Shown piece after piece: positions 44,368 to 56,996 of a stretch of DNA of 64,000 nt; position 1 is the first letter of the stretch, and every line of letters begins with the position of its first letter. Source of the DNA: Roseovarius dicentrarchi (lineage in GTDB: Bacteria > Pseudomonadota > Alphaproteobacteria > Rhodobacterales > Rhodobacteraceae); NCBI RefSeq assembly GCF_003316635.1, contig NZ_QNQP01000001.1:239647-303646 (forward strand). The letters run 5' to 3'. The notes beneath the pieces were generated by a model. The model searched no databases, had not been told where the DNA came from, and was given only the letters and a program-made list of their open reading frames with translations. Position numbers and translations under genes: made by a program.

Positions 44368-44867
44368 AAATATACGGCGTCACCGGCTGGAAAAACGCCG
44401 GGAAAACCGGATTGATGGAACGTCTAGTGACTGAAATCACCGGGCGCGGCCTGCGCGTGTCGACGGTGAAACACGCCCATCACAGCTTTGACGTGGATCA
44501 GCCGGGGCGCGACAGCTATCGCCACCGCGCGGCAGGCGCGGACGAGGTGTTACTGGTTTCCGGCACCCGTATCGCCCTGATGCAGGAGCTGCGCGGCGCG
44601 CCCGAGCCGCCGCTGGCGGACCTTCTGGCGCGGCTCACCCCCATCGATCTGGTCCTGATCGAGGGCTACAAACGCGAGGACCACCCCAAGGTCGAGGCAT
44701 GGCGCAGCAGCGCCGGCAATCCGCTGATCGCGCCCGATGATCCCACGATCCGCGTCGTCGCTGCCGATATCCCCGCCGAGGTGGCAGGCCAGGTCAGCCA
44801 GCCGGTGCTGGACCTGAACGACACCGCCGCCATCGCCGATTTCATCCTGGCCGAGCTGGGGCTGTGA
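44364..44867 (+). CDS. mobB: Molybdopterin-guanine dinucleotide biosynthesis protein MobB
   Basis: A 167-residue GTP-binding partner of MobA. P-loop GVTGWKNAGKTGLMERLV at the N-terminus, the switch-like STVKHAHHSFDVDQPGRDSYRHRAAGADEV, and LVLIEGYKREDHPKVE. Overlaps at both ends with mobA and moeA point to a coupled operon. Confidence 0.94.
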   Translation: MKIYGVTGWKNAGKTGLMERLVTEITGRGLRVSTVKHAHHSFDVDQPGRDSYRHRAAGADEVLLVSGTRIALMQELRGAPEPPLADLLARLTPIDLVLIEGYKREDHPKVEAWRSSAGNPLIAPDDPTIRVVAADIPAEVAGQVSQPVLDLNDTAAIADFILAELGL

Positions 44868-46993
44868 CCGGGTTCGACAGCTTTCTGGTCGTCGACTGGT
44901 CGGCATCTGCCGCGCCCGCGCCCGCGCGCCCATCCAAGGATGCGATATGGCTGGGCCTTGTGCAGGGCGGCACCCCGCAGGATCCACTCTACTGCCGCAC
45001 CCGGACCGAGGCCGAGGCGCGTATTGCCGACATTATCGCGGGCGAACGCGCCGCCGGTCGCCGCCTGTTGGTCGGCTTCGATTTTCCGTTCGGCTATCCG
45101 ATCGGCACCGCGCGGCGCATCACCGGCAGCGACGATCCGCTGGCCCTTTGGGACTGGCTGGAGGCGCGCATTACCGACAGCGACACCGGCGCCAACAACC
45201 GCTTTGACGTGGCCGAGGCGATGAATGCCCGCTTCGATGATCCGGGCCCATTCTGGGGCAAGACCCACGCGGATCGCTGGCCCGGCATCCCCTACCGCAA
45301 GGCGGGCATAGACTACACCGAAATCGCGGAAAAGCGTGCCTGCGACGTGGCCGCCAAGGCCGCCAGCAGCTGTTTTCAGCTGTGTTTTCCGCCCACGGTG
45401 GGCAGCCAGATGTTGATGGGCCTGCCGATGCTCTCGCGGCTGCGCCGCCAGCATGGCGCACGCGCCTGGCCATTTGACGATTGGCAAGACGCGCCGACAG
45501 TGCTGGCCGAAATATGGCCCGGTTTGATAGAATCCGCCGTGACATCCGCGCTCGGCGCAGGCGCGCCGATCCGCGACGCGGTGCAGGTCACGCTGCTGGC
45601 GCGGGCGCTGTCGCGCCTGCCGGCGGCGGACCTGAATGCAATGATGACAGACCTGCCGCAAGCGGCACAGCAGGAGGCTTGGATCTTGGGCACCGGACAT
45701 GAAAGCACGCTGAACGATCTGGCCGGGGATGACGCGCCCCCCGCGCCGCCGCCGCTGCGCGACGATTGCTTTGCCATGCCCGCCGGGGTGGACTGGACGC
45801 CGGTGGATGATGCGCTGGCCACCCTGCGCGCCGGTCTGCACCCGGTCGTGCGCCCCGCGCACTGCAACGTGCCGGACGCCTGCGGGCGCATCCTGTCCGC
45901 GCCCGCCATCGCGCGCCGCGCCAATCCGCCCACGCCCAATTCGGCGGTGGATGGGTATGGCTTTGCCCATGACAGCCTGCCGCCGGGCGATCCGGTGCTG
46001 CCGCTGGTTTCGGGCCGCGCGGCTGCCGGCGTGCCCTATGACGGCACGGTGCCGCCCGGCCATGCCATCCGCATTCTGACCGGCGCGGCGGTGCCGGCGG
46101 GCGTCGATACCGTCATACTGGAAGAAGATACGCGCACGGGCGCAGGCCAGCTCGCCTTTCGCGCCGGGATAAAGCGCGGCGCAAACACCCGCAAGGCGGG
46201 CGAGGATGTGGACGCGGGGGCCGAACTGCTGCCCAAGGGCCGCGTGCTGACCCCTGCCGATCTGGCGCTGCTGGCCGCAACCGGGCTGGGCGTGGTCGAG
46301 GTGTTCGAGCGTCTGCGCGTCGCCGTCATTTCCACCGGGGACGAGTTGATCGAGGCAGGCGGCGCGGCCAATCCCGGCCAGATCTATGACGCCAACCGCC
46401 CGATGCTGCTGGCCCAGATCCGCGCATGGGGGCTGGAGGCGGTCGATATGGGCCGCATCCCCGATGACCGCGCCGCCCTGCGCGCCGCGCTGGATGATGC
46501 CGCCAGCCGCGCCGATGTGATCCTGACCTCGGGCGGCGCCTCGGCGGGGGACGAGGATCACGTCTCGGCCCTTTTGTCCGAGGCGGGCGCGATGCAGCAA
46601 TGGCGCATCGCGCTGAAGCCGGGCCGACCGCTGGCCCTGGGTCTGTGGCAGGGCGCACCGGTGTTCGGCCTGCCCGGCAATCCGGTGGCCGCATTGGTCT
46701 GCACGCTGATCTTTGCGCGCCCCGCGCTTGGCCTGCTGGCCGGCGCGGGCTGGCAAGAGCCGCAGGTGTTCCACGTCCCGGCCGCGTTCGAGAAATCGAA
46801 AAAACCGGGCCGCCGCGAATATCTGCGCGCCCGCATCCGCGATGGCCGCGCCGAAGTGTTCGCGTCCGAAGGATCGGGCCGGATCAGCGGCCTCAGCTGG
46901 GCCGAGGGGCTGGTGGAGTTGCCCGACGCCGCCGCCACGATCCAGGCGGGCGATCCGGTGCGCTACTACCCGTTCGGCAGTTTCGCATTCTGA
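44864..46993 (+). CDS. moeA: Molybdopterin molybdenumtransferase MoeA with N-terminal extra domain
   Basis: Inserts molybdenum into adenylated molybdopterin. In 709 residues the MoeA part begins near residue 300 and shows ANPPTPNSAVDGYGFA, ILTGAAVPAGVDTVILEEDT, the MoCF fold STGDELIEAGGAANPGQIYDANRPM and LTSGGASAGDEDHVSALL, and GLPGNPVAALV. Residues 1-290 are a separate domain starting FLVVDWSASAAP and with LLVGFDFPFGYP, an arrangement of two aspartates reminiscent of RNase H-fold (DUF429-like) proteins. The start is GTG overlapping the mobB stop. The double length is real: the frame is continuous. Confidence 0.9.
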   Translation: MTGFDSFLVVDWSASAAPAPARPSKDAIWLGLVQGGTPQDPLYCRTRTEAEARIADIIAGERAAGRRLLVGFDFPFGYPIGTARRITGSDDPLALWDWLEARITDSDTGANNRFDVAEAMNARFDDPGPFWGKTHADRWPGIPYRKAGIDYTEIAEKRACDVAAKAASSCFQLCFPPTVGSQMLMGLPMLSRLRRQHGARAWPFDDWQDAPTVLAEIWPGLIESAVTSALGAGAPIRDAVQVTLLARALSRLPAADLNAMMTDLPQAAQQEAWILGTGHESTLNDLAGDDAPPAPPPLRDDCFAMPAGVDWTPVDDALATLRAGLHPVVRPAHCNVPDACGRILSAPAIARRANPPTPNSAVDGYGFAHDSLPPGDPVLPLVSGRAAAGVPYDGTVPPGHAIRILTGAAVPAGVDTVILEEDTRTGAGQLAFRAGIKRGANTRKAGEDVDAGAELLPKGRVLTPADLALLAATGLGVVEVFERLRVAVISTGDELIEAGGAANPGQIYDANRPMLLAQIRAWGLEAVDMGRIPDDRAALRAALDDAASRADVILTSGGASAGDEDHVSALLSEAGAMQQWRIALKPGRPLALGLWQGAPVFGLPGNPVAALVCTLIFARPALGLLAGAGWQEPQVFHVPAAFEKSKKPGRREYLRARIRDGRAEVFASEGSGRISGLSWAEGLVELPDAAATIQAGDPVRYYPFGSFAF

Positions 46994-47010: not shown

Positions 47011-47124
47011 TCAGACCAGAAACAGCCGGATGCCGTAGCCGATCGCCCCCAGCACGGCGACGGACAGCGCCCATATGGCGACGAACCACAGCAGGCGCTG
47101 CCAGAACGGGCGCGGCTGCGACAT
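47011..47124 (-). CDS. DUF2474 small subunit of bd-type oxidase
   Basis: A 37-residue peptide (MSQPRPFWQRLLWFVAIWALS...) with one membrane helix, typical of the DUF2474 peptides that follow cyanide-insensitive bd oxidases and correspond in role to CydX. Its ATG overlaps the cydB stop (ATGA), so it is co-translated. Confidence 0.9.
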   Translation of the reverse strand: MSQPRPFWQRLLWFVAIWALSVAVLGAIGYGIRLFLV

Positions 47125-48161
47125 CAGTGATAGCCGCTTTCGGGGTCGATCTTGCCGCGGAACACCCAGTAGGCGTAGGCGGTATAGGCCAGAATGATCG
47201 GCAGCAGCACCGACGCGCCGACCAGCATGAACACCTGACTGCGCCGGGGGGCCGCAGCCTCCCAAATCGTGACCTCGGTTGGCACGATATAGGGGAACAT
47301 CGACACGCCCAGCCCGACAAAGCACAAGCTGAACAGCGCCAGCGCCAGCACGAAAGGCCGGTATTCGTGCCGGTGGATGGTCAGCGACCGGAACATCAGC
47401 GCCGCAATCGCCAGCACCGCCAGCGCCACGCCACCCGCCAGCCCGATATGCCAGCCGGCGAACCAGCGGCTGTAGTACCCCTCTTGCAAGAACGGGGTCC
47501 AGAGGCTGATGATGCCGATGAACACCAGCGTCGCCACGCCCAGCGGCCATGCACGGGTGCGCATCCGCTCTTGCAACTCGCCGGTTGTCTTCATCACCAG
47601 CCACGTGGCGCCCAGCAGCATGTAACCGGCCATGACCGCCACGCCCACGGTCAGCGAGAACGGCGTCAGCCAATCCCACCAGCCGCCAGAATAGCTGCGC
47701 GCGGCCTTGTCGATGTCAATGCCTTGCAGCAGCGCGCCCAGCGCGATCCCCTGGCACAGCGACGCGATGCCCGACCCGCCGATGAATGCCGCATCCCAGG
47801 CGGCGCGCATGCTGCCCCGCTCGGCCCGCCAGCGAAATTCGAACGCCACACCGCGAAAGATCAGCGCCAGCAGCATCAGGATGATCGGCATATACAGCGC
47901 GGGCAGGATCAGCGCATAGGCCAGCGGAAACGCCGCCATCAGCCCGCCGCCGCCCAGCACCAGCCACGTCTCGTTGCCGTCCCAGACGGGGGCGACGGTG
48001 TTCATCATCACGTCGCGGTCGCCGCGCTTTCGCTCCAGCGCGAACAACATCCCAAGGCCCAGATCGAACCCGTCAAGGATGACGTAGATCAGCACCGCCG
48101 CGGCAATCAGGAACGCCCAGATCACGGTCAGATCGAATGAAAACCCTTCAACCATTGGCAT
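47124..48161 (-). CDS. cydB: Cytochrome bd (cyanide-insensitive type) oxidase subunit II
   Basis: Subunit II of the bd quinol oxidase. A 345-residue protein with eight or nine membrane segments and signatures FLIAAAVLIYVILDGFDLGLG, NTVAPVWDGNETWLVLGGGGLMAAFP and ALIFRGVAFEFRWRAE. It begins just after the cydA stop. Confidence 0.95.
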   Translation of the reverse strand: MPMVEGFSFDLTVIWAFLIAAAVLIYVILDGFDLGLGMLFALERKRGDRDVMMNTVAPVWDGNETWLVLGGGGLMAAFPLAYALILPALYMPIILMLLALIFRGVAFEFRWRAERGSMRAAWDAAFIGGSGIASLCQGIALGALLQGIDIDKAARSYSGGWWDWLTPFSLTVGVAVMAGYMLLGATWLVMKTTGELQERMRTRAWPLGVATLVFIGIISLWTPFLQEGYYSRWFAGWHIGLAGGVALAVLAIAALMFRSLTIHRHEYRPFVLALALFSLCFVGLGVSMFPYIVPTEVTIWEAAAPRRSQVFMLVGASVLLPIILAYTAYAYWVFRGKIDPESGYH

Positions 48162-48164
48162 GGA

Positions 48165-49613
48165 TCATTCCCCCGCTTCTATCGGTGCCGACCGCGGCGG
48201 CTTGTCGTCATGGGCCGCCGCCTTGCCCGCTGTGCGCACCGGGCCCTGGCTGATATCCTTCATCCGCGCCTCGCCGGTGTGGGGCGGCTGGGCCATCAGG
48301 CGCAGCATGTAATAGGTGCCGGCGCCGAATACCGAAAAGTAGATGACGATGAACGCAACCAGCGTCGCGCCCACCGCCGGCGCATCCAGCGGCGCGGCGC
48401 TGTCGGCGGTGCGCAGCAGGCCGTAAACGGTAAAGGGCTGGCGCCCCACCTCGGTCGTGATCCAGCCCGCCAGCACCGCAATCAGGCCCGAGGGCGCCAT
48501 GACCAGCGCCGCGCGGTGCAGCATGGGCGCATGAAACAGCGTGCCGCGCCAGCGCGCCCAGAGCGACCAAAGGCCAATGCCCAGCATCGCAAAGCCCAGC
48601 GCCACCATGATGCGGAAGGCCCAGAACACGATGCCGACAGGCGGCTGATCGGCGTCCGGCACGGTATCCAGCCCGGCCAGCGGCGCGTTCAGATCATGCT
48701 TCAGGATCAGCGAGGACAGCTTGGGGATGCCCAGCGCATAATCCAGCGTCTGCGTTTCGTCATTGGGGATGCCGAACAGGTAAAGCGGCGCGCCGTTCTC
48801 GTGGCTCTCGTAATGGCCCTCCATCGCCATGACCTTGGCCGGTTGATACTCCAGCGTGTTGATGCCGTGCAAATCGCCCAGGAATATCTGCACCGGCGCG
48901 ACGATCGCCGCCATCCACATCGCCATGGAAAACATGGTGCGCGTGGCCGGCGTGACCTCCTCGCTGTGGCGCCGCCGTTTCAGCAGGTGAAACGCCGCAA
49001 CGCCGCCAACGATGAAGGCCGTCGTCAGATAGGCCGCCGTGACCGTGTGCATCAGGCGGTAAGGGAAGGACGGGTTGAATACGATCTGCCAGAAATCCAA
49101 GGGAAGGAACTGCCCGGTCGCGGCGTCAATCTCGAACCCGACGGGGGTGTGCATCCAGCTGTTGACGCTGATGATCCAGAAGGCCGAGAAAAACGTGCCG
49201 AACGCCACCGCAGCGCAGGCCGCCATATGCAGGCCCGGCCCCACCTTGTCGCGGCCAAACAGCATGATGCCAAGAAACCCCGCCTCAAGGAAAAACGCCG
49301 ACAGCACCTCGTAGGCCATCGGCCCGCCGATCACCGGCCCGGCCTTGTCCGAAAACACCGACCAGTTGGTGCCGAACTGGTAGGACATGACGATGCCCGA
49401 CACGACCCCCATGGCAAAGGCCAGCGCGAAAATCTTGACCCAGTAGCGGAACAGATCCAGATAACGCCGCTTTTTCGTCCACAGCCACAGCGCGTTCAGC
49501 ACCGCCAGATAGCTGGCCAGCCCGATGGTGAACGCCGGAAACAGGAAGTGGAACGATACGGTAAATGCGAATTGCAGGCGGGCCAAAAGCACCGCATCGA
49601 AGGAACCGAGCAT
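48165..49613 (-). CDS. cydA: Cytochrome bd (cyanide-insensitive type) oxidase subunit I
   Basis: Subunit I, which binds the hemes and oxidises quinol. In 482 residues: LQFAFTVSFHFLFPAFTIGLA with the heme-ligand histidine, MSYQFGTNWSVFSDKAGPVIGGPM, EAGFLGIMLFG, NSWMHTPVGFEI and, near the C-terminus, GWITTEVGRQPFTVYGLLRT. The Q-loop looks short, as in CIO-type enzymes. The start is at 49611-49613 (MLGSFDAVLLARLQF); an upstream 44-codon extension has no family match. It is divergent from the Crp/Fnr gene. Confidence 0.95.
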   Translation of the reverse strand: MLGSFDAVLLARLQFAFTVSFHFLFPAFTIGLASYLAVLNALWLWTKKRRYLDLFRYWVKIFALAFAMGVVSGIVMSYQFGTNWSVFSDKAGPVIGGPMAYEVLSAFFLEAGFLGIMLFGRDKVGPGLHMAACAAVAFGTFFSAFWIISVNSWMHTPVGFEIDAATGQFLPLDFWQIVFNPSFPYRLMHTVTAAYLTTAFIVGGVAAFHLLKRRRHSEEVTPATRTMFSMAMWMAAIVAPVQIFLGDLHGINTLEYQPAKVMAMEGHYESHENGAPLYLFGIPNDETQTLDYALGIPKLSSLILKHDLNAPLAGLDTVPDADQPPVGIVFWAFRIMVALGFAMLGIGLWSLWARWRGTLFHAPMLHRAALVMAPSGLIAVLAGWITTEVGRQPFTVYGLLRTADSAAPLDAPAVGATLVAFIVIYFSVFGAGTYYMLRLMAQPPHTGEARMKDISQGPVRTAGKAAAHDDKPPRSAPIEAGE

Positions 49614-49661
49614 GACAAACCTCGCTCTTTGCTGCAGGTGAGGTAACGCAGCCAGCCCCTT

Positions 49662-49694
49662 AAGGCAAATGATCCGCCTTGCGTGAAATGTCAC
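49662..49694. promoter_or_regulatory. Two inverted repeats between cydA and the Crp/Fnr gene
   Basis: AAGGC-N9-GCCTT at 49662-49680 and GTGA-AATG-TCAC at 49683-49694 sit side by side in the divergent promoter region. GTGA/TCAC arms fit the Crp-type recognition helix (R-E-x-x-x-R) of the neighbouring regulator, although the 4-base spacer is shorter than the 6 of E. coli CRP sites. It may control both directions. Confidence 0.5.
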
Positions 49695-49768
49695 ACCCCC
49701 GCTTTGCAATGCTGCTGCGGACTGACTAAACTCGCACAATCGCACCCGATTTTCAGGATCTCCGCAGC

Positions 49769-50482
49769 ATGAGCAACGACACCCCCCGCCCCGGCGCAGC
49801 AGAGCATCCGGCCGGGGCGCCCGAGGTCTGGATCGACCGATTTGCCGGCCTGTCCCGGCTCAAGGGGCAGGTCCGGCAAACGCTGCTGGCGCGCAGCACC
49901 ATCATTGCCGCGCCGCGCGGCACGGTGGTATTCGGCCCCGGCAAGTCACCGGAAAACATGCTGTTTTTGCTGGATGGATCGGTGCGGGTGCAGCAAACCT
50001 CCGAAGGCGGGCGCGAAATTGTCCTCTACCGCATCCATGCCGGGGAAAGCTGCGTTTTGACCACGGCCTGCCTGCTGGCCTATGACGATTACGCCGCCGA
50101 AGGCATCGCCGAAACGGACATCCGCGCCGCCGCCCTGCCCCGGAGCGTGTTTGACGATCTGGTCGCAACATCGCCCGAATTTCGCAATTTCGTGTTCTTC
50201 GCCTTCTCCAAGCGCATTACCGATCTGTTCCTGATGATCGACGAGGTGGCGTTTCAGCGCATCGACGTGCGGCTGGCGCAGAAACTGCACGAGCTGGCCC
50301 AAGGCGGGCCAGAGGTGCAGACAACGCATCAGCAGCTGGCGGCCGAGCTGGGCAGCGCGCGCGAGGTCATCTCGCGTCAGTTGCAGGAATTCCAGCGCCG
50401 CGGCTGGATTGCCCAGACGCGCGGCACCATCGCGCTGACCGATGCGGGGGCGCTGGCCGAACTGGCACAGCACCGCAGCTGA
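49769..50482 (+). CDS. Crp/Fnr family transcriptional regulator
   Basis: A 237-residue regulator with an N-terminal cyclic-nucleotide-binding-like beta barrel and a C-terminal HTH (QQLAAELGSAREVISRQLQEF). The helix shows R-E...S-R, the residues that read GTGA-type half sites in CRP. There is no N-terminal cysteine cluster, so it is not an oxygen-sensing Fnr; two cysteines in ESCVLTTACLLAY, between barrel strands, could sense thiols or sulfane sulfur (inference). It stands between cydAB and the sulfide operon. Confidence 0.88.
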   Translation: MSNDTPRPGAAEHPAGAPEVWIDRFAGLSRLKGQVRQTLLARSTIIAAPRGTVVFGPGKSPENMLFLLDGSVRVQQTSEGGREIVLYRIHAGESCVLTTACLLAYDDYAAEGIAETDIRAAALPRSVFDDLVATSPEFRNFVFFAFSKRITDLFLMIDEVAFQRIDVRLAQKLHELAQGGPEVQTTHQQLAAELGSAREVISRQLQEFQRRGWIAQTRGTIALTDAGALAELAQHRS

Positions 50483-50506
50483 CGGGCCGGGGCTGCGCGG
50501 GCTGTG

Positions 50507-50519
50507 TGACAAAGTCACT
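50507..50519. promoter_or_regulatory. GTGAC-AAA-GTCAC palindrome upstream of the sulfide operon
   Basis: A perfect inverted repeat lies between the Crp/Fnr stop and the DUF2892 gene. A TATAGA -10-like hexamer at 50542-50547 would put transcription start near 50554 and the palindrome centre near -41, the classic position for activation by Crp/Fnr proteins. Spacing between GTGA and TCAC is 5 bases. Confidence 0.55.
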
Positions 50520-50576
50520 GACCCCGCCCCCCGCGCGGCGGTATAGATTGGTCAAACCATTTGGAAAGGCCCCGCC

Positions 50577-50789
50577 ATGACACCGAATATCGGACCCACC
50601 GACCGCATTTTTCGCATCGTTTTCGGCCTGCTGCTGATTGCGCTGCCATTTATCAGCGGCTTTGCCCTGTTTGACGCAACATGGGCCACGGCCGCATCTG
50701 TCATCATCGGCATCGTGCTGCTGGCCACCGCCGCCATGCGGTTCTGCGCGCTCTACACCCTATTTGGGATTCGCACCTGCAGCCGCTGA
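50577..50789 (+). CDS. DUF2892 small membrane protein (YgaP membrane-domain type)
   Basis: A 70-residue protein with two membrane helices. MTPNIGPTDRIFRIVFGLLLI and FCALYTLFGIRTC are typical of DUF2892, the domain that anchors the rhodanese YgaP; a cysteine pair lies near the C-terminus. It is the first gene of the sulfide operon and fits a role in handling sulfane sulfur at the membrane (inference). Confidence 0.88.
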   Translation: MTPNIGPTDRIFRIVFGLLLIALPFISGFALFDATWATAASVIIGIVLLATAAMRFCALYTLFGIRTCSR

Positions 50790-50816
50790 CCCCACCTGCC
50801 CCCTCGGAGGACATAC

Positions 50817-51698
50817 ATGAGCTATCCCATCGACATGTCGATCACACCGGACGTTTCGGCGCATTTTGACGCGGCAACCAATACCATCAGCTATATCGCC
50901 CGCGATCCGGCCAGCAATCACTGCGCCATCATCGACAGCGTGATGGACATCGACTATGCCGCCGGCCGGATCACCCATGACCACGCCGATGCGCTGATAG
51001 CCGAGATCGAATCGCGCGGGCTGGTTCTGGACTGGATCATCGAGACGCATGTGCATGCTGACCACCTCAGCGCCGCGCCCTATATCCAGCAGCGGCTGGG
51101 CGGCAAGATCGGCGTTGGCGACCAGATCATGGTCGTGCAGGACACGTTCGGCAAAGTCTTTAACGAAGGCACCGAATTCCAGCGCGACGGCAGCCAATTC
51201 GATGCCTTGTTCGAGGATGGCGATACCTACAAGGTCGGGGAAATGGACTGCAGGGCGATCTACACCCCCGGCCACACGCCCGCCTGCATGGTGCATGTGA
51301 TGGGCAACACCGCCTTTGTCGGGGATACGCTGTTCATGCCCGACGGCGGCTCGGCCCGTGCCGATTTTCCGGGCGGCGACGCCGGCACATTGTACGACAG
51401 TATTCAAAAGGTGCTGGCCCTGCCGGACGACATGCGCCTGTTCATGTGCCACGATTACGGCCCGAATGGCCGCGCCATCGCGTGGGAGACGACCGTGGCC
51501 GAGCAGAAGGCGCACAACATCCATGTCGGCGGCGGCAAGTCGCGCGAGGAGTTCGTGCGCTTTCGCAACGAACGCGACGCGACCCTGGCCATGCCGCGCC
51601 TGATCATCCCGTCGCTTCAGGTCAATATGCGCGCAGGCCACGTGCCCGCCGACAAGGACGGCAACCCGATGCTCAAGGTGCCGATCAACACGCTGTAA
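50817..51698 (+). CDS. ETHE1-like persulfide dioxygenase (MBL fold)
   Basis: Predicted to oxidise glutathione persulfide to sulfite. A 293-residue metallo-beta-lactamase-fold protein with ETHVHADHLSAAPYI, TPGHTPACMVHVMG, FVGDTLFMPDGGSARADFPGG and FMCHDYGPNG, matching the single-iron ligands of ETHE1-type enzymes and the conserved ARADF. No rhodanese domain is attached. GGAGG precedes the ATG. The adjacent SQOR-like gene would produce its substrate. Confidence 0.85.
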   Translation: MSYPIDMSITPDVSAHFDAATNTISYIARDPASNHCAIIDSVMDIDYAAGRITHDHADALIAEIESRGLVLDWIIETHVHADHLSAAPYIQQRLGGKIGVGDQIMVVQDTFGKVFNEGTEFQRDGSQFDALFEDGDTYKVGEMDCRAIYTPGHTPACMVHVMGNTAFVGDTLFMPDGGSARADFPGGDAGTLYDSIQKVLALPDDMRLFMCHDYGPNGRAIAWETTVAEQKAHNIHVGGGKSREEFVRFRNERDATLAMPRLIIPSLQVNMRAGHVPADKDGNPMLKVPINTL

Positions 51699-51720
51699 TG
51701 ACCGCCGCAAGGGAATTTCC

Positions 51721-53400
51721 ATGACGTTAGAGACCAAGACGATTTCGGCGCAGCTTTCGGTCGCGCCCCAAATTACGGCGGCCGATATCCCCGCGCTGAA
51801 ACAGCAGGGCTATCGTTCGATCATCTGCAACCGGCCCGACGGCGAAGGCGCCGATCAGCCCAGCTTTGGCGAGATCGAGCAGGCGGCGAAATCCGCCGGG
51901 CTTGAGGCGCGCTATATCCCCATCACCCACGGGCTGGTCAGCGAGGGCGACGCCGATACCTTTGGCGCGGCGCTGGCCGAATTGCCCGGCCCGGTGCTGG
52001 CTTATTGCCGATCCGGCACGCGGTCGGCAACGCTGTGGTCATTGGCGCAGGCGGGTAGCAAGACGGTCCCCGACATTCTGGCCGCCACCCAACGCGCGGG
52101 CTACGACATGAGCGGCGTGGTCCGCCGCATCGCCAATGGCGGCAAGACGCCGACAGATGCGCCCGATGCCAGCCATGATATCGTGATCGTCGGCGCCGGC
52201 GCCGCCGGTATTGCCGTGGCCGCCAGCCTGCATTCACGCGATGCCGCGCTGGATATTGCCATTATCGACCCGGCGGATGTGCATTATTACCAACCCGGCT
52301 GGACCATGGTAGGCGGCGGCATTTTCGACGCCAGCCAGACCGCCAAGACGATGGCCAGCCTGATCCCGAAAGGCGTCACTTGGATCAAATCCGCCGTCGC
52401 CGCGTTCGAGCCGCAGCAAAATGCAATCATCCTCGATGGCTGCCGCGTGGTGAAATACACCCGGCTGATCGTCTGCCCCGGCCTCAAGCTGGACTGGGGC
52501 AAGGTCGATGGCCTGATCGACACGCTGGGCAAGAATGGCGTGACGTCGAATTACCGCTATGATCTGGCGCCTTACACCTGGAAGCTGGTCCAGAACATGA
52601 GCAGCGGCCGCGCCATATTCACCCAGCCGCCCATGCCGATCAAATGCGCCGGCGCACCGCAAAAGGCGATGTACCTGTCCTGCGATGCGTGGCTGCGTCG
52701 CGGCGTGCTGAAGGATATCAATGTTCAGTTCAACAATGCCGGCGCGGTGCTGTTCGGGGTCAAGGAGTACGTGCCTGCCCTGATGGACTATGTCGAGAAA
52801 TACAAGGCGCAGTTGAACTTTCATCACAACCTGATCTCGGTCGATGGCGCCGCGAAAACAGCCGTTTTCGAGGTCAAGGAGCCTGACGCGGAGGCAAGGC
52901 GGGTCGAGATGGAATTTGACCTGATGCATGTCTGCCCGCCGCAGACAGCGCCCGATTTCATCCGCGTCTCGCCCCTGGCCGATGCGGCGGGCTGGATCGA
53001 CGTTGACCAGTCCACCCTGCGGCACAAAACCTACGACAACATCTGGTCACTGGGCGATGTGATGAATGCCCCGAACGCCAAAACCGCCGCCGCCGCGCGC
53101 GTGCAGGCGCCCACCGTGGCCGAGAATGTGATCGCCGATATCAGCGGCAAATCGGCGGTGGCGCTTTATAACGGCTATGGCTCCTGCCCGCTGACGGTGG
53201 AGCGGGGCAAGATCGTACTGGCCGAATTCGGCTATGGGGGCAAGCTGCTGCCCAGCCTGCCGGGCGCGCTGATTGACGGAACCAAACCATCCCGCGCCGC
53301 GTGGTTCCTGAAGGAACGGATGCTGCCGCCGATCTACTGGAAGGCGATGCTGCGCGGGCGTGAATGGCTGGCATCGCCGGAACATCCGGATCTGCCCTAG
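51721..53400 (+). CDS. Fusion: tyrosine-phosphatase-like/sulfurtransferase (TIGR01244) domain plus SQOR-like sulfide:quinone oxidoreductase
   Basis: Two-domain protein of 559 residues. Residues 1-110 form a TIGR01244/DUF442 domain with the Cys-loop AYCRSGTRSATLW, which in related proteins may carry sulfur. Residues from about 150 form an FAD oxidoreductase: VIVGAGAAGIAVAASLHS, YYQPGWTMVGGG, and the cysteine motifs PIKCAGAPQKAMYLSCDAW and SCPLTVERGKIVLAEFGYGG, which match human SQOR. It would oxidise sulfide to a persulfide and pass electrons to quinone. This fused form is common in alphaproteobacteria. Confidence 0.9.
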   Translation: MTLETKTISAQLSVAPQITAADIPALKQQGYRSIICNRPDGEGADQPSFGEIEQAAKSAGLEARYIPITHGLVSEGDADTFGAALAELPGPVLAYCRSGTRSATLWSLAQAGSKTVPDILAATQRAGYDMSGVVRRIANGGKTPTDAPDASHDIVIVGAGAAGIAVAASLHSRDAALDIAIIDPADVHYYQPGWTMVGGGIFDASQTAKTMASLIPKGVTWIKSAVAAFEPQQNAIILDGCRVVKYTRLIVCPGLKLDWGKVDGLIDTLGKNGVTSNYRYDLAPYTWKLVQNMSSGRAIFTQPPMPIKCAGAPQKAMYLSCDAWLRRGVLKDINVQFNNAGAVLFGVKEYVPALMDYVEKYKAQLNFHHNLISVDGAAKTAVFEVKEPDAEARRVEMEFDLMHVCPPQTAPDFIRVSPLADAAGWIDVDQSTLRHKTYDNIWSLGDVMNAPNAKTAAAARVQAPTVAENVIADISGKSAVALYNGYGSCPLTVERGKIVLAEFGYGGKLLPSLPGALIDGTKPSRAAWFLKERMLPPIYWKAMLRGREWLASPEHPDLP

Positions 53401-53472
53401 GCCGCGCCAGCCTGATCTGAAACGCGCCGTGCGGCCACCGCCGCCGGCGCCATTTTTGCCTGAGATTGACAC

Positions 53473-55215
53473 ATGCACGCCATCGCCCGCTATTTCCCGA
53501 TCCTGACATGGGGCCGCGCCTATGACCGCGCCGCCCTGTCGGATGATCTGATCGCCGCCGTGATCGTGACGATCATGCTGGTGCCGCAATCGCTGGCCTA
53601 TGCGCTGCTGGCCGGGATGCCGCCCGAGGCGGGGCTTTATGCCTCGATCGCGCCGATCCTGCTCTATGCGGTGTTCGGGACCAGCAATGCGCTGGCCGTC
53701 GGGCCGGTTGCGGTGGTGTCGCTGATGACCGCCGCCGCACTGGGCGAGGTCGCCAGTCAGGGCAGCATGGGCTATGCCGCCGCCGCGCTGACGCTGGCGG
53801 CACTGTCGGGCGTGATATTGCTGGCGATGGGGGTCTTCCGGCTGGGATTTCTGGCCAATTTCCTGTCGCATCCGGTCATTGCCGGGTTCATCACCGCCTC
53901 GGCCATCATCATCGCCCTTGGCCAGCTGCGCCATATCCTCGGCATTGCGGGCGGCGGCGATACGCTGATTGAACTGGCACAGAGCCTGGCGCTGAACCTG
54001 CACCAGATAAACATCCCCACGCTGGTCCTGGGCGCATCTGCCACGGCCTTCCTGTTCTGGGTGCGCCGGGGGCTGAAGCCCGCCCTGCGCCGCGTCGGAC
54101 TTGGCCCGCGCATGGCCGATGTCGCGGCCAAGGCGGGGCCGGTGGCGGCTGTGGTCGCGACAACTCTGGCGGTCTGGGGGCTGGATCTGGGCGCACGGGG
54201 CGTGGCCATTGTCGGCACTGTCCCGCAGGCGCTGCCGCCGCTGACCATGCCGGATCTGTCACCGGATCTGATCGGCCAGCTGCTGCTGCCGGCGCTGCTG
54301 ATCTCGGTCATCGGCTTTGTCGAATCCATTTCCGTGGCGCAGACGCTGGCCGCGAAAAAGCGCGAACGCGTCAGCCCAAATCAAGAACTTATCGGGCTGG
54401 GTGCGGCCAACATGGGCGCGGCTTTTACCGGCGGTTTCCCGGTAACGGGCGGCTTTTCCCGGTCGGTGGTGAATTTCGACGCAGGCGCGCGCACCCCTGC
54501 CGCAGGCGCGTTCACCGCCGCCGGGCTGGCCATTGCCGCGCTGGCGCTGACACCGCTGATCTACTACCTGCCAAAGGCGACGCTGGCGGCGACCATCATC
54601 GTCGCGGTCCTCGGCCTGGTCGATTTCGGCATCCTGCGCCGCAGCTGGACCTATTCCAAGCCCGATTTCATCGCCGTCGCCACCACGATCGCCGTCACAC
54701 TTGCCTTGGGCGTTGAGCTGGGCGTGACCAGCGGCGTGGTGATTTCCGTGCTGCTCTACCTGTTCAAAACCTCGCGCCCGCATATTGCCGAAGTAGGCCG
54801 GATTGCCGGGACCGAGCATTTTCGCAACATCCACCGCCATGACGTGCTGACCGATCCGGCCATCGTCACCCTGCGCATTGACGAAAGCCTGTATTTCGCC
54901 AACGCCCGGTTTCTGGAGGATCACATTCTGGACCGCGTCACCCGCGACAAGGCCGTGCGGCATGTCATCCTGCAATGCTCGGCCATAAACGAGATTGACC
55001 TCAGCGCGCTGGAATCGCTTGAGGCTATCAACCAGCGGCTGAGCGGGATGGGCGTCGCGCTGCACCTGTCCGAGGTCAAGGGCCCGGTCATGGACCGGCT
55101 GAAGCGCGCGCGTTTTCTGAACGAAATGACCGGTTCCGTGTTTCTGTCCCAACATGGCGCCATCGCCGAACTGACCGGCGCGCCGTACACTGACACCACA
55201 AAGGGAGGCATTTGA
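53473..55215 (+). CDS. SulP family anion transporter with STAS domain
   Basis: A 580-residue sulfate-permease-family protein. About ten or more membrane segments include VPQSLAYALLAGMPPEAGLYASIAPILLYAVFGTS and GGFPVTGGFSRSVVNFDAGARTP, followed by a cytoplasmic STAS domain from about residue 440 (VTLRIDESLYFANARFLED, LQCSAINEIDLSALESLEAI). In this operon export of sulfite/sulfate or uptake of a related anion is likely; direction is not certain. Confidence 0.92.
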   Translation: MHAIARYFPILTWGRAYDRAALSDDLIAAVIVTIMLVPQSLAYALLAGMPPEAGLYASIAPILLYAVFGTSNALAVGPVAVVSLMTAAALGEVASQGSMGYAAAALTLAALSGVILLAMGVFRLGFLANFLSHPVIAGFITASAIIIALGQLRHILGIAGGGDTLIELAQSLALNLHQINIPTLVLGASATAFLFWVRRGLKPALRRVGLGPRMADVAAKAGPVAAVVATTLAVWGLDLGARGVAIVGTVPQALPPLTMPDLSPDLIGQLLLPALLISVIGFVESISVAQTLAAKKRERVSPNQELIGLGAANMGAAFTGGFPVTGGFSRSVVNFDAGARTPAAGAFTAAGLAIAALALTPLIYYLPKATLAATIIVAVLGLVDFGILRRSWTYSKPDFIAVATTIAVTLALGVELGVTSGVVISVLLYLFKTSRPHIAEVGRIAGTEHFRNIHRHDVLTDPAIVTLRIDESLYFANARFLEDHILDRVTRDKAVRHVILQCSAINEIDLSALESLEAINQRLSGMGVALHLSEVKGPVMDRLKRARFLNEMTGSVFLSQHGAIAELTGAPYTDTTKGGI

Positions 55216-55216
55216 C

Positions 55217-55657
55217 ATGCTGCCAATCACACCAACCGATTTCACGCCATGGGCGTCGCTGGGGGGCGGTATCCTGATCGGCCTTTCGGCGGTCATGGTC
55301 ATGGCCCTGTTTGGCCGCATCGCCGGCATTGTCGGCATCACCGCGGGCGCGGCCACCGCAGGCGACCGGGGCTGGCGCATCGCCTTTATCGGCGGGCTGA
55401 TCGCGGCGCCGCTGCTGTGGCTGGTCGCAACAGGCGCGATGCCGCAGCAGACGGTCAGCAGCAACCTGCCCGCCATGGCCATTGCCGGGCTGATGGTCGG
55501 CGCCGGCACCGCGCTGGGATCGGGCTGTACGTCGGGGCATGGGGTGTGCGGACTGGCGCGCCTGTCGGGCCGGTCGCTGGCGGCTGTCATCACATTCATG
55601 ATTTTTGCGGCAGGCACGGTGTTCGTGCTGCGCCATGTCATCGGGGGGGCAGTGTGA
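55217..55657 (+). CDS. YeeE/YedE family permease subunit
   Basis: A 146-residue membrane protein with the conserved cysteine motif GSGCTSGHGVCGLARLSGRS of YeeE/YedE proteins, whose larger homologues import thiosulfate. It starts 1 base after the SulP stop and overlaps the next subunit (TGATG), so the two half-size proteins probably act together. Confidence 0.9.
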   Translation: MLPITPTDFTPWASLGGGILIGLSAVMVMALFGRIAGIVGITAGAATAGDRGWRIAFIGGLIAAPLLWLVATGAMPQQTVSSNLPAMAIAGLMVGAGTALGSGCTSGHGVCGLARLSGRSLAAVITFMIFAAGTVFVLRHVIGGAV

Positions 55658-56076
55658 TGCGGATCGTTTTCGGCTTCCTGTCGGGGCTTGTCTTTGGCAT
55701 CGGCCTGATCATCTCGGGCATGGCCAATCCGGCCAAAGTCCTGAATTTCCTCGATATATTCGGGGCATGGGATCCCAGCCTGGCGTTCGTGATGGGCGGC
55801 GCGATGCTGACGGCATTTGTCGGGTTCCGGCTGGCATGGAAGCAAAGCGCGCCAGTCCTGCTGCCCAAGTTCGACCTGCCCACCGCCAGCGATATCGACG
55901 GCAAGCTGCTGACCGGCGCAGCGGTTTTCGGCATCGGTTGGGGCATCGGCGGCTTTTGCCCCGGACCGGCCTGGACCGCGCTGACCATGGCGGCGCCCGG
56001 CACGCTGGTATTCGTGCCGATGATGCTGCTCGGCGTCGTGCTGGGCCGCTATCTGAAATCCAACACCTTCGCATAA
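55657..56076 (+). CDS. YeeE/YedE family permease subunit (DUF6691 type)
   Basis: A 139-residue membrane protein with FLSGLVFGIGLIISGMANPAKVLNFLDIFG, FGIGWGIGGFCPGPAW carrying the conserved cysteine, and about four membrane segments. It complements the preceding half. Paired subunits like this accompany persulfide dioxygenases and SQR in many proteobacteria. Confidence 0.9.
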   Translation: MRIVFGFLSGLVFGIGLIISGMANPAKVLNFLDIFGAWDPSLAFVMGGAMLTAFVGFRLAWKQSAPVLLPKFDLPTASDIDGKLLTGAAVFGIGWGIGGFCPGPAWTALTMAAPGTLVFVPMMLLGVVLGRYLKSNTFA

Positions 56077-56084
56077 AGGAGCGT

Positions 56085-56996
56085 ATGAACATGACAAAGG
56101 ACGCAATCACCCGCCACTCCCCCTCGACCGGCGCAGGCAGCCCGGATGTCTGGGGCATTTACGAGCCTGATACCGGGTCGATCCAGTATATCTGCGCCTG
56201 CCCTACCACCAAAAAGGCCGCGCTGATCGATGTGGTCTGGAATTTCGACCCCAAGAGCTTTGCCACCGATACGCGCAGCATGGATCAGGTGGTGGCACTG
56301 GCCAAAGAAAACGGTCTGGAGATCACCCTGATCCTCGACACGCACCCCCATGCGGATCACGTCATGGCATCGGCGCAGCTGAAACAGCAGCTGGGCGTGC
56401 CCAACGCCATCGGCGCCAAGGTGCGCGAGATCGCGGAATTGTGGCGCGATCTGTACAACACGCCGACCGCCTTTGACCCGGAGCGGGATTTCGACCACCT
56501 GTTCGAGGATGGCGACAGCTTTGCCATTGGCGATCTGGAGGTGCGCGTGATGCTGTCGCCGGGGCATACGCTGGGCTCGATCACCTATGTCTGCGGCGAT
56601 GCGGCCTTTGTCCACGACACGCTGATGATGCCCGATGCCGGCACCAGCCGCGCGGATTTCCCCGGCGGATCGGCGGATGAGCTGTGGCAGTCAATCCAGG
56701 CCATCCTCAGCCTGCCGGACGAAACGCGCCTGTATATCGGCCACGATTACGGCACCGATGACCGCGACGCGCCGATGTGGGAGGCCACCGTTGCCGAGCA
56801 TAAGGCCAAGAACAAACATGTGAAATCAGGAACGGACAAGGCGGACTATATCAAGACGCGGCAGGACCGCGATGCAACGCTGGCCCTGCCCGACCGGATG
56901 CTGGCCGCGCTGCAAATCAACCTGCGCGGCGGTCGCCTGCCGGAGGCCGAGGGTGACGGACATTCCTATCTGAAAATGCCGGTCAACAAGTTCTAA
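56085..56996 (+). CDS. Second ETHE1-like MBL-fold protein (probable persulfide dioxygenase)
   Basis: A 303-residue paralogue of the dioxygenase earlier in the operon. LDTHPHADHVMASAQL replaces THVHADH, with SPGHTLGSITYVCG, FVHDTLMMPDAGTSRADFPGG and YIGHDYGTDD; all metal ligands are kept. The start at 56085 follows AAAGGAG; an ATG two codons later is possible. Two such enzymes in one operon may differ in substrate, for example CoA-, glutathione- or protein-bound persulfide (inference). Confidence 0.84.
   Translation: MNMTKDAITRHSPSTGAGSPDVWGIYEPDTGSIQYICACPTTKKAALIDVVWNFDPKSFATDTRSMDQVVALAKENGLEITLILDTHPHADHVMASAQLKQQLGVPNAIGAKVREIAELWRDLYNTPTAFDPERDFDHLFEDGDSFAIGDLEVRVMLSPGHTLGSITYVCGDAAFVHDTLMMPDAGTSRADFPGGSADELWQSIQAILSLPDETRLYIGHDYGTDDRDAPMWEATVAEHKAKNKHVKSGTDKADYIKTRQDRDATLALPDRMLAALQINLRGGRLPEAEGDGHSYLKMPVNKF

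What the first reader, a model, noticed from the sequence alone, without database searches (positions are those of the whole stretch)
47011..56996. Predicted sulfide-resistance module: bd oxidase, Crp/Fnr regulator, SQOR fusion, two persulfide dioxygenases and sulfur permeases
bd-type oxidases are known to resist sulfide. Here a CIO-type oxidase is divergent from a Crp/Fnr protein that leads a seven-gene operon for sulfide oxidation and sulfur-anion transport. The regulator has no Fe-S cysteines but has two cysteines in a barrel loop (ESCVLTTACLL). Together this reads as a unit that senses sulfide or sulfane sulfur and switches respiration and detoxification at once. The usual BigR/SqrR-type ArsR regulator is absent from the locus.
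Basis: partly seen in the sequence, partly recalled or inferred. Interest (0 to 1): 0.7.

Follow-up and report, generated by a model that had tools for sequence, protein, structure and literature searches.

The report
Sulfur-sensing Crp switch for sulfide operon
A Crp/Fnr-type gene regulator with two strongly conserved cysteines sits at the head of a bacterial sulfide-detoxification gene set, is predicted to switch that set on through a short DNA palindrome that most close relatives carry at the same spot, and would likely sense reactive sulfur, which would make it a class of sulfide switch separate from the known ones.

Summary
The genes are as described: a bd oxidase is divergent from a Crp/Fnr gene followed by a YgaP-like membrane protein, a persulfide dioxygenase (PDO), a sulfurtransferase-SQR fusion, SulP, PmpA, PmpB and a second PDO. 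Comparison supports a dedicated regulator. Cys95 is invariant (166 of 166 loci; 360 of 360 listed homologues) and Cys101 nearly so (154; 358). A 13-bp palindrome, GTGAC-N3-GTCAC, lies just after the regulator gene, before the operon (50506-50518); its half-sites occur there in 68 of 81 near loci against 0.14 in shuffles. A -10 element follows at a fixed distance (53 of 72), placing the site near -41, the class II activator position. Where the YgaP-like gene is inverted the site goes with it (8 of 8), and two targets unlinked from crp carry it. The respiratory half fails: 0 of 21 cydA upstream regions have the site, cydA adjoins in 19 of 80 near loci, and 10 of those 19 have an Rrf2 regulator in between. 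crp itself shows no site upstream (0 of 81). A SqrR-type ArsR gene exists elsewhere in the genome. Binding of the palindrome by this protein and sulfur sensing by Cys95/Cys101 are inferred, not shown.

The parts
47011..47130 (-). DUF2474 small protein, overlaps the end of cydB
   Evidence: Pfam PF10617
47124..48161 (-). cydB/cioB, bd oxidase subunit II
   Evidence: Pfam PF02322, TIGR00203
48165..49613 (-). cydA/cioA, bd oxidase subunit I (ATG start, as in L003)
   Evidence: Pfam PF01654; no operator upstream
49769..50482 (+). Crp/Fnr regulator; C95 and C101; recognition helix with R198, E199, R203
50506..50518 (.). operator GTGACAAAGTCAC
50542..50547 (+). predicted -10 element TATAGA, 23 bp after the operator
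50577..50789 (+). YgaP-like membrane protein (70 aa; two cysteines near its C-terminus)
   Evidence: Pfam PF11127; sequence
50817..51698 (+). persulfide dioxygenase PDO1
   Evidence: Pfam Lactamase_B; aligns to Blh dioxygenase part; HVHADH
51721..53400 (+). DUF442 sulfurtransferase - SQR fusion
   Evidence: PF04273, TIGR01244, SQR-like match below cut-off
53473..55215 (+). SulP permease with STAS domain
   Evidence: PF00916, PF01740, TIGR00815
55217..55657 (+). PmpA, YeeE/YedE-type half transporter
   Evidence: sub-threshold PF04143; position; name recalled
55654..56076 (+). PmpB, second half transporter
   Evidence: PF20398 DUF6691; name recalled
56085..56996 (+). persulfide dioxygenase PDO2
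   Evidence: HPHADH

Best explanation
The locus encodes a two-cysteine Crp/Fnr-family protein that is predicted to be a dedicated activator of the sulfide-detoxification operon behind it, likely binding the GTGAC-N3-GTCAC palindrome found there and likely responding to sulfane sulfur through Cys95 and Cys101. Shown by sequence: the gene order, the conserved cysteines, the palindrome between crp and the operon, its fixed distance to a -10-like element, and its presence at target promoters that are inverted or unlinked from crp. Inferred: that this protein is the one that binds the palindrome (CRP-type R-E-R recognition residues, site beside crp, spacer length that tracks the recognition helix); that a site centred near -41 means class II activation of RNA polymerase; that persulfide or polysulfide modifies or bridges Cys95/Cys101 on the barrel helix near where CRP holds the cAMP phosphate, and so shifts the dimer to its DNA-binding form; that the induced proteins then oxidise sulfide to persulfide and sulfite and move sulfur anions. 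The bd oxidase is a frequent neighbour without the operator and is more likely under other control.
For: Cys95 166/166 and Cys101 154/166 loci; 360/360 and 358/360 homologues. Operator after crp: 68 of 81 near loci, shuffled mean 0.14; 103 of 165 with 5-bp and 8 of 165 with 6-bp spacer in the wide set, 0.2 each in shuffles. In 1.40 Mb of the 80 near loci 76 sites of GTGAYNNNRTCAC, 68 of them right after crp. -10 TA at offset 22 in 53 of 72 and at 23 in 13. Inverted YgaP-like genes: site 56-66 bp before their start in 8 of 8 (4 perfect, 4 with 7 of 8 bases). 61-genome scan: 18 of 46 sites beside crp, YgaP-like or PDO genes, two of them without crp nearby. Recognition residues R198, E199, R203 in 360 of 360, equivalents of CRP R180, E181, R185, which read the half-site (passages of PMC1274295). 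Targets are sulfide and persulfide genes.
Against: No binding, expression or chemical data. 13 of 81 near loci lack the full site within 130 bp of crp. Cys101 is missing in 12 of 166 loci, so a two-cysteine mechanism is not universal. Many far members have only a YgaP-like gene behind crp and no PDO or SQR near, so the sulfur link there rests on the YgaP name. 28 of the 46 sites in the 61-genome scan have no module gene: 22 inside called genes, 6 between genes. The genome also has a SqrR-type regulator. Loci share descent, which the shuffles do not control.
Confidence: 0.64

Rival explanations
1. The protein activates the operon through the same operator but senses another signal: NO, peroxide or general thiol oxidation, or an unknown ligand in the barrel; the cysteines are general redox or structural residues.
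For: Peroxiredoxin and Rrf2 (NsrR/RirA-like) genes adjoin crp in some loci. Cys95 is conserved even where Cys101 is not. HcpR, another Crp/Fnr branch, is tied to NO stress (passages of PMC1274295).
Against: The genes behind the operator are sulfide and persulfide genes or YgaP-like genes. In the 73-sequence alignment no histidine of the sensor domain is invariant, which speaks against a conserved heme ligand.
Confidence: 0.27
2. The palindrome belongs to another regulator, such as the unlinked SqrR-type ArsR protein or a global CRP, and the adjacent Crp/Fnr protein controls something else.
For: A SqrR-type ArsR is encoded in the genome. No operator binding was tested.
Against: The site has CRP-type GTGA half-sites and the protein has CRP-type recognition residues. 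16 of the 18 module-linked sites in the genome scan adjoin a crp homologue. Residue M or I at position 200 occurs in 8 of 12 rows with a 6-bp spacer and 0 of 110 with a 5-bp spacer. A site near -41 suits an activator.
Confidence: 0.06
3. One reading: the regulator senses sulfide and switches the bd oxidase and the detoxification operon together.
For: The oxidase is divergent and close in the window and within 2.6 kb in 19 of 80 near loci. In E. coli bd oxidase is induced by sulfide and cydAB reads rise in a ygaV mutant (passages of PMC9774250). The window has a GTGA-N4-TCAC palindrome before cydA.
Against: 0 of 21 cydA upstream regions hold the operator; 2 of 21 hold a 7-of-8 match against a shuffled mean of 2.52. 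The N4 palindrome is absent in L003 and L004. 10 of 19 cydA-linked loci have an Rrf2 gene in between.
Confidence: 0.1

Closest known systems
bigR operon of Xylella and Agrobacterium (BigR ArsR repressor, Blh, TauE-type exporter)
   Same: Same chemistry: DUF442 sulfurtransferase and ETHE1-type dioxygenase, regulator gene beside the operon, two-cysteine regulator (passages of PMC5823870)
   Different: BigR is an ArsR repressor on the -10 region; here a Crp/Fnr protein with a site near -41, predicted activator; DUF442 is fused to SQR instead of the dioxygenase
SqrR of Rhodobacter capsulatus and YgaV-YgaP of E. coli
   Same: Sulfide-responsive control; YgaV sits beside ygaP as this Crp sits beside a YgaP-like_TM gene; a SqrR-type gene is in this genome
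   Different: ArsR repressors, other fold, other operator; the SqrR-type gene here is on another contig
E. coli CRP / FNR and HcpR
   Same: Crp/Fnr fold; CRP-type R-E-R recognition residues and GTGA half-site; site position like class II promoters (recalled)
   Different: TGA-N5-TCA here against TGA-N6-TCA in the consensus sites quoted in PMC1274295; Arg-Ser of CAP replaced by Tyr-Ala; no four-Cys cluster; Cys95/Cys101
3dv8, EUBREC_1222 of Eubacterium rectale (solved structure)
   Same: Best profile hit in the PDB, 156 bits against 76 for the next; both cysteines present in the alignment
   Different: 26% identical; its function and gene neighbourhood were not examined here

Membership tests
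Crp/Fnr superfamily | N-terminal cNMP-type barrel, dimer helix and C-terminal HTH_Crp | tested here: met
   PF00027 and PF13545 above cut-off; model and PDB matches
FNR (Fe-S oxygen sensor) | four cysteines for a [4Fe-4S] cluster | tested here: not met
   only two cysteines in the window protein
CRP (cAMP receptor) | Arg-Ser pair and Glu that bind cAMP (residue roles recalled) | tested here: not met
   aligned with Thermus CAP they are Tyr-Ala and Thr; CRP equivalog score 46 against cut-off 266
HcpR | co-localised hcp gene and TGTGA-N6-TCACA-type site | tested here: inconclusive
   the genes of this operon hold no hcp match; the genome was not searched for hcp; the site has a 5-bp spacer
BigR/SqrR (ArsR) regulation of this operon | ArsR gene in the operon | tested here: not met
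   only two HTH_5 ArsR genes in the genome, both on other contigs; one is SqrR-type
class II activator-dependent promoter | site centred near -41.5 from the start of transcription | tested here: inconclusive
   fixed operator to -10 distance in 53 of 72, and one more base in 13; no transcript start was mapped
persulfide sensor | persulfide-driven change at regulatory cysteines that alters DNA binding | not testable with these tools
   only cysteine conservation and gene context were tested

The most novel reading that the evidence does not exclude
A broad Crp/Fnr subfamily, running from Alpha-, Gamma- and Zetaproteobacteria to at least one Bacillota protein with a solved but unassigned structure (3dv8), is a class of direct persulfide sensors. 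Cys95 and Cys101 sit on the barrel helix that stands in for the cAMP-phosphate pocket; sulfur loading turns the dimer into a class II activator on an operator mostly one base pair shorter than the CRP/FNR standard, switching on YgaP-like genes across the family and whole sulfide-oxidation operons in Rhodobacterales.
Probability: 0.43. Interest if true: 0.78.

Novelty: new variant of a known kind. Interest (0 to 1): 0.63.

Why it matters
The dedicated bacterial persulfide sensors met in the papers seen here are ArsR repressors (BigR, SqrR, YgaV), the cst operon regulator and FisR; ten searches found no Crp/Fnr one. If true, this adds a class that activates instead of derepresses, offers an explanation of how Rhodobacterales without a linked BigR/SqrR switch this operon, gives an operator that can be scanned for across genomes, and assigns a testable role to many proteins named only Crp/Fnr family and to the structure 3dv8.

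Tried and rejected

Limits of counts: one search aligned 77 of 81 near proteins because four reading frames were cut wrongly; one search repeats it with frames chosen from the middle of each hit (179 rows, 13 duplicates dropped, 166 kept, one without downstream DNA). In some searches the 12 rows labelled as 6-bp spacer include L073, whose better site is the 5-bp one before its inverted YgaP-like gene. In some searches a further site (L158) has a weak PDO-like hit (39%) and is not among the 18. L149 gave no Crp hit and was left out. Gene calls outside the window come from my own simple caller, which overextends some starts. Homologue lists are capped at 120 per search.

Literature: ten answered searches listed no paper on a Crp/Fnr protein as the dedicated regulator of sulfide or persulfide genes. 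The phrases with 'crp fnr' do not match a slash, so those three are weak. Only open-licence papers are held. PMC1274295, PMC7315123, PMC8014003, PMC5823870 and PMC9774250 were seen as passages; PMC9995734 was searched for terms and gave no passage; the rest were seen as search listings. PMC7315123 reports persulfidation of a CRP-like global regulator in Acinetobacter baumannii, by the paper 50% identical to E. coli Crp: a lead that Crp proteins can be persulfidated, but another protein type.

Full report
What is there. The window lies on contig C11 of a 3.5-Mb genome; its Crp protein is nearest to uncultured Roseovarius and Pelagivirga sequences. Every gene in the finding is present. Downstream of crp on the same strand come a 70-aa YgaP-like membrane protein, PDO1, a DUF442 sulfurtransferase-SQR fusion, SulP, PmpA, PmpB and PDO2; divergent are cydA, cydB and a DUF2474 gene. 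A search of the genome found no second SQR (only a stand-alone DUF442 match) and no second YgaP-like gene.

The module is conserved. From one scan of GTDB genomes, the best 80 loci of 154 confirmed were kept. Most bear names of Rhodobacterales genera; exceptions include Kiloniella, Thalassospira and a Rhizobiaceae MAG. The common order is crp, YgaP-like, PmpA, PmpB, PDO, sulfurtransferase-SQR, SulP, with parts missing or moved in many. Within 6 kb of crp, 69 of 80 have a PDO, SQR, SulP or Pmp hit; 58 of 80 have a YgaP-like hit within 1.2 kb; 19 of 80 have cydA within 2.6 kb. In Celeribacter and Pacificibacter loci crp stands behind a sox cluster, soxC by model and soxB by recall, with the YgaP-like gene convergent.

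The family is wide. In 398 genomes of the phylum 89 have a homologue at E 1e-15, and in 229 genomes of the class of G364 67 have one at E 1e-20. Homologue searches counted 5925, 5064 and 510 proteins at E 1e-10; the listed ones bear generic names such as Crp/Fnr family or cAMP receptor protein, with a few automatic labels such as SdrP, from Yoonia, Mariprofundus, Acidihalobacter, Sulfuricaulis and others. The YgaP-like gene stays: on the same strand within 600 bp after crp in 96 of 166 unique rows, and within 1.2 kb in 18 of 29, 22 of 39 and 15 of 30 loci of three partly overlapping far samples.

The cysteines. Cys95 is invariant in 166 unique loci and Cys101 is present in 154; in 360 listed homologues 360 and 358. 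Many far members carry a further cysteine at position 61 (70 of 166). In phmmer's alignment with Thermus CAP, Cys95 falls in a two-residue insertion, Cys101 in the stretch after it, and the Arg-Ser pair of CAP is Tyr-Ala. A confident model (pLDDT 91.3) has a helix at 96-104 with Cys95 just before it. The best PDB relative by profile is 3dv8, 156 bits against 76 for the next, with both cysteines aligned.

The operator. Enumerating palindromes in the 110 bp after crp gave one outstanding word, GTGAC-N3-GTCAC. With reading frames corrected, GTGA-N5-TCAC occurs within 130 bp after crp in 68 of 81 near loci against a shuffled mean of 0.14, but in 0 of 81 regions upstream of crp and 0 of 21 upstream of cydA. 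In the wide set 103 of 165 have the 5-bp spacer and 8 of 165 a 6-bp spacer, 0.2 each in shuffles. The 6-bp form clusters on the tree (4 changes against a shuffled mean of 11.7) and goes with M or I at position 200 (8 of 12 rows against 0 of 110). These shuffles keep base composition only and do not control descent.

It looks like an activator site. After the operator a TA of a -10-like element stands at offset 22 in 53 of 72 loci and at 23 in 13. That puts the operator centre at about -41 or -42, the class II position of CRP and FNR (recalled). In the window the element is TATAGA at 50542-50547.

It follows the targets, not crp. In the eight sox-linked loci where the YgaP-like gene is inverted, the site is 56-66 bp before that gene's start in 8 of 8 (4 perfect, 4 with 7 of 8 half-site bases). 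A scan of 61 genomes of the family with GTGACNNNGTCACNGA gave 47 rows, 46 distinct sites, and 46 loci were looked at. Eighteen lie beside a crp homologue, YgaP-like gene or PDO, the window's own among them; of the other 28, 22 are inside called genes and 6 between genes without a module gene. Sixteen of the 18 adjoin crp. The other two are a PDO-SQR operon 21 kb from crp in G083 and a lone YgaP-like gene in G431, whose crp operon lies elsewhere and also has the site.

The oxidase. Besides lacking the operator, 10 of the 19 cydA-linked near loci have an Rrf2 gene between cydA and crp, some also with peroxiredoxin or EF-hand genes. Four Rrf2 proteins scanned score best with the RirA model and also with NsrR, below both cut-offs. 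The window, L003 and L004 lack it. The oxidase is a real neighbour with probable separate control.

SqrR. The genome has two ArsR genes of the HTH_5 family; one matches structures 6o8l and kin with 136 bits and has two cysteines aligned with theirs (that this PDB group is R. capsulatus SqrR is recalled). The usual regulator is thus absent from the locus, as said, but not from the genome.

Mechanism and status. Shown by sequence: operator, promoter geometry, target genes, cysteines. Inferred: that the Crp/Fnr protein binds the site and activates, and that it senses sulfane sulfur by Cys95/Cys101. Rodionov 2005 links CRP residues R180 and E181 to bases of the half-site (passages), and the equivalents are invariant here.

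Verdict. A dedicated Crp/Fnr regulator of sulfide detoxification is well supported by comparison; its sulfur sensing is likely but untested; coupling to the bd oxidase is not supported.

Noticed in passing
L215:1345-1734 (G000 contig C19): SqrR/BigR-type ArsR gene, 136 bits to the 6o8l group, unlinked to the sulfide operon; what it controls was not examined.
   Followed up: partly
L016, L019, L026, L029, L034, L048, L049, L054, L055, L067 between cydA and crp: An Rrf2 regulator with a C-X7-C-X5-C pattern, closest to RirA and NsrR models but below their cut-offs, sits between cydA and crp.
   Followed up: partly
Far Crp homologues, position 61 of the window protein: A third cysteine stands here in 70 of 166 loci; the window protein has proline.
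   Followed up: no
Operator in L105, L122, L123, L132, L140, L143, L144, L145: A 6-bp instead of a 5-bp spacer between the GTGA and TCAC half-sites, linked with M or I at position 200 in most.
   Followed up: partly
YgaP-like hits in 119 loci: 96 of 119 match C..Y..(2-4)G..TC near the end, two cysteines that might carry sulfur.
   Followed up: no
L218 (G000 contig C2): A stand-alone DUF442 sulfurtransferase, 51% identical to the N-terminal domain of the SQR fusion.
   Followed up: no
window 44864-46993: A 709-aa ORF whose C-terminal part looks like MoeA (recalled, not searched) behind an unrelated N-terminal part: a possible fusion.
   Followed up: no
L033, L035, L065, L068, L070, L073, L074, L081: crp behind a sox cluster with DUF302 upstream and a convergent YgaP-like gene that carries its own operator.
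   Followed up: yes
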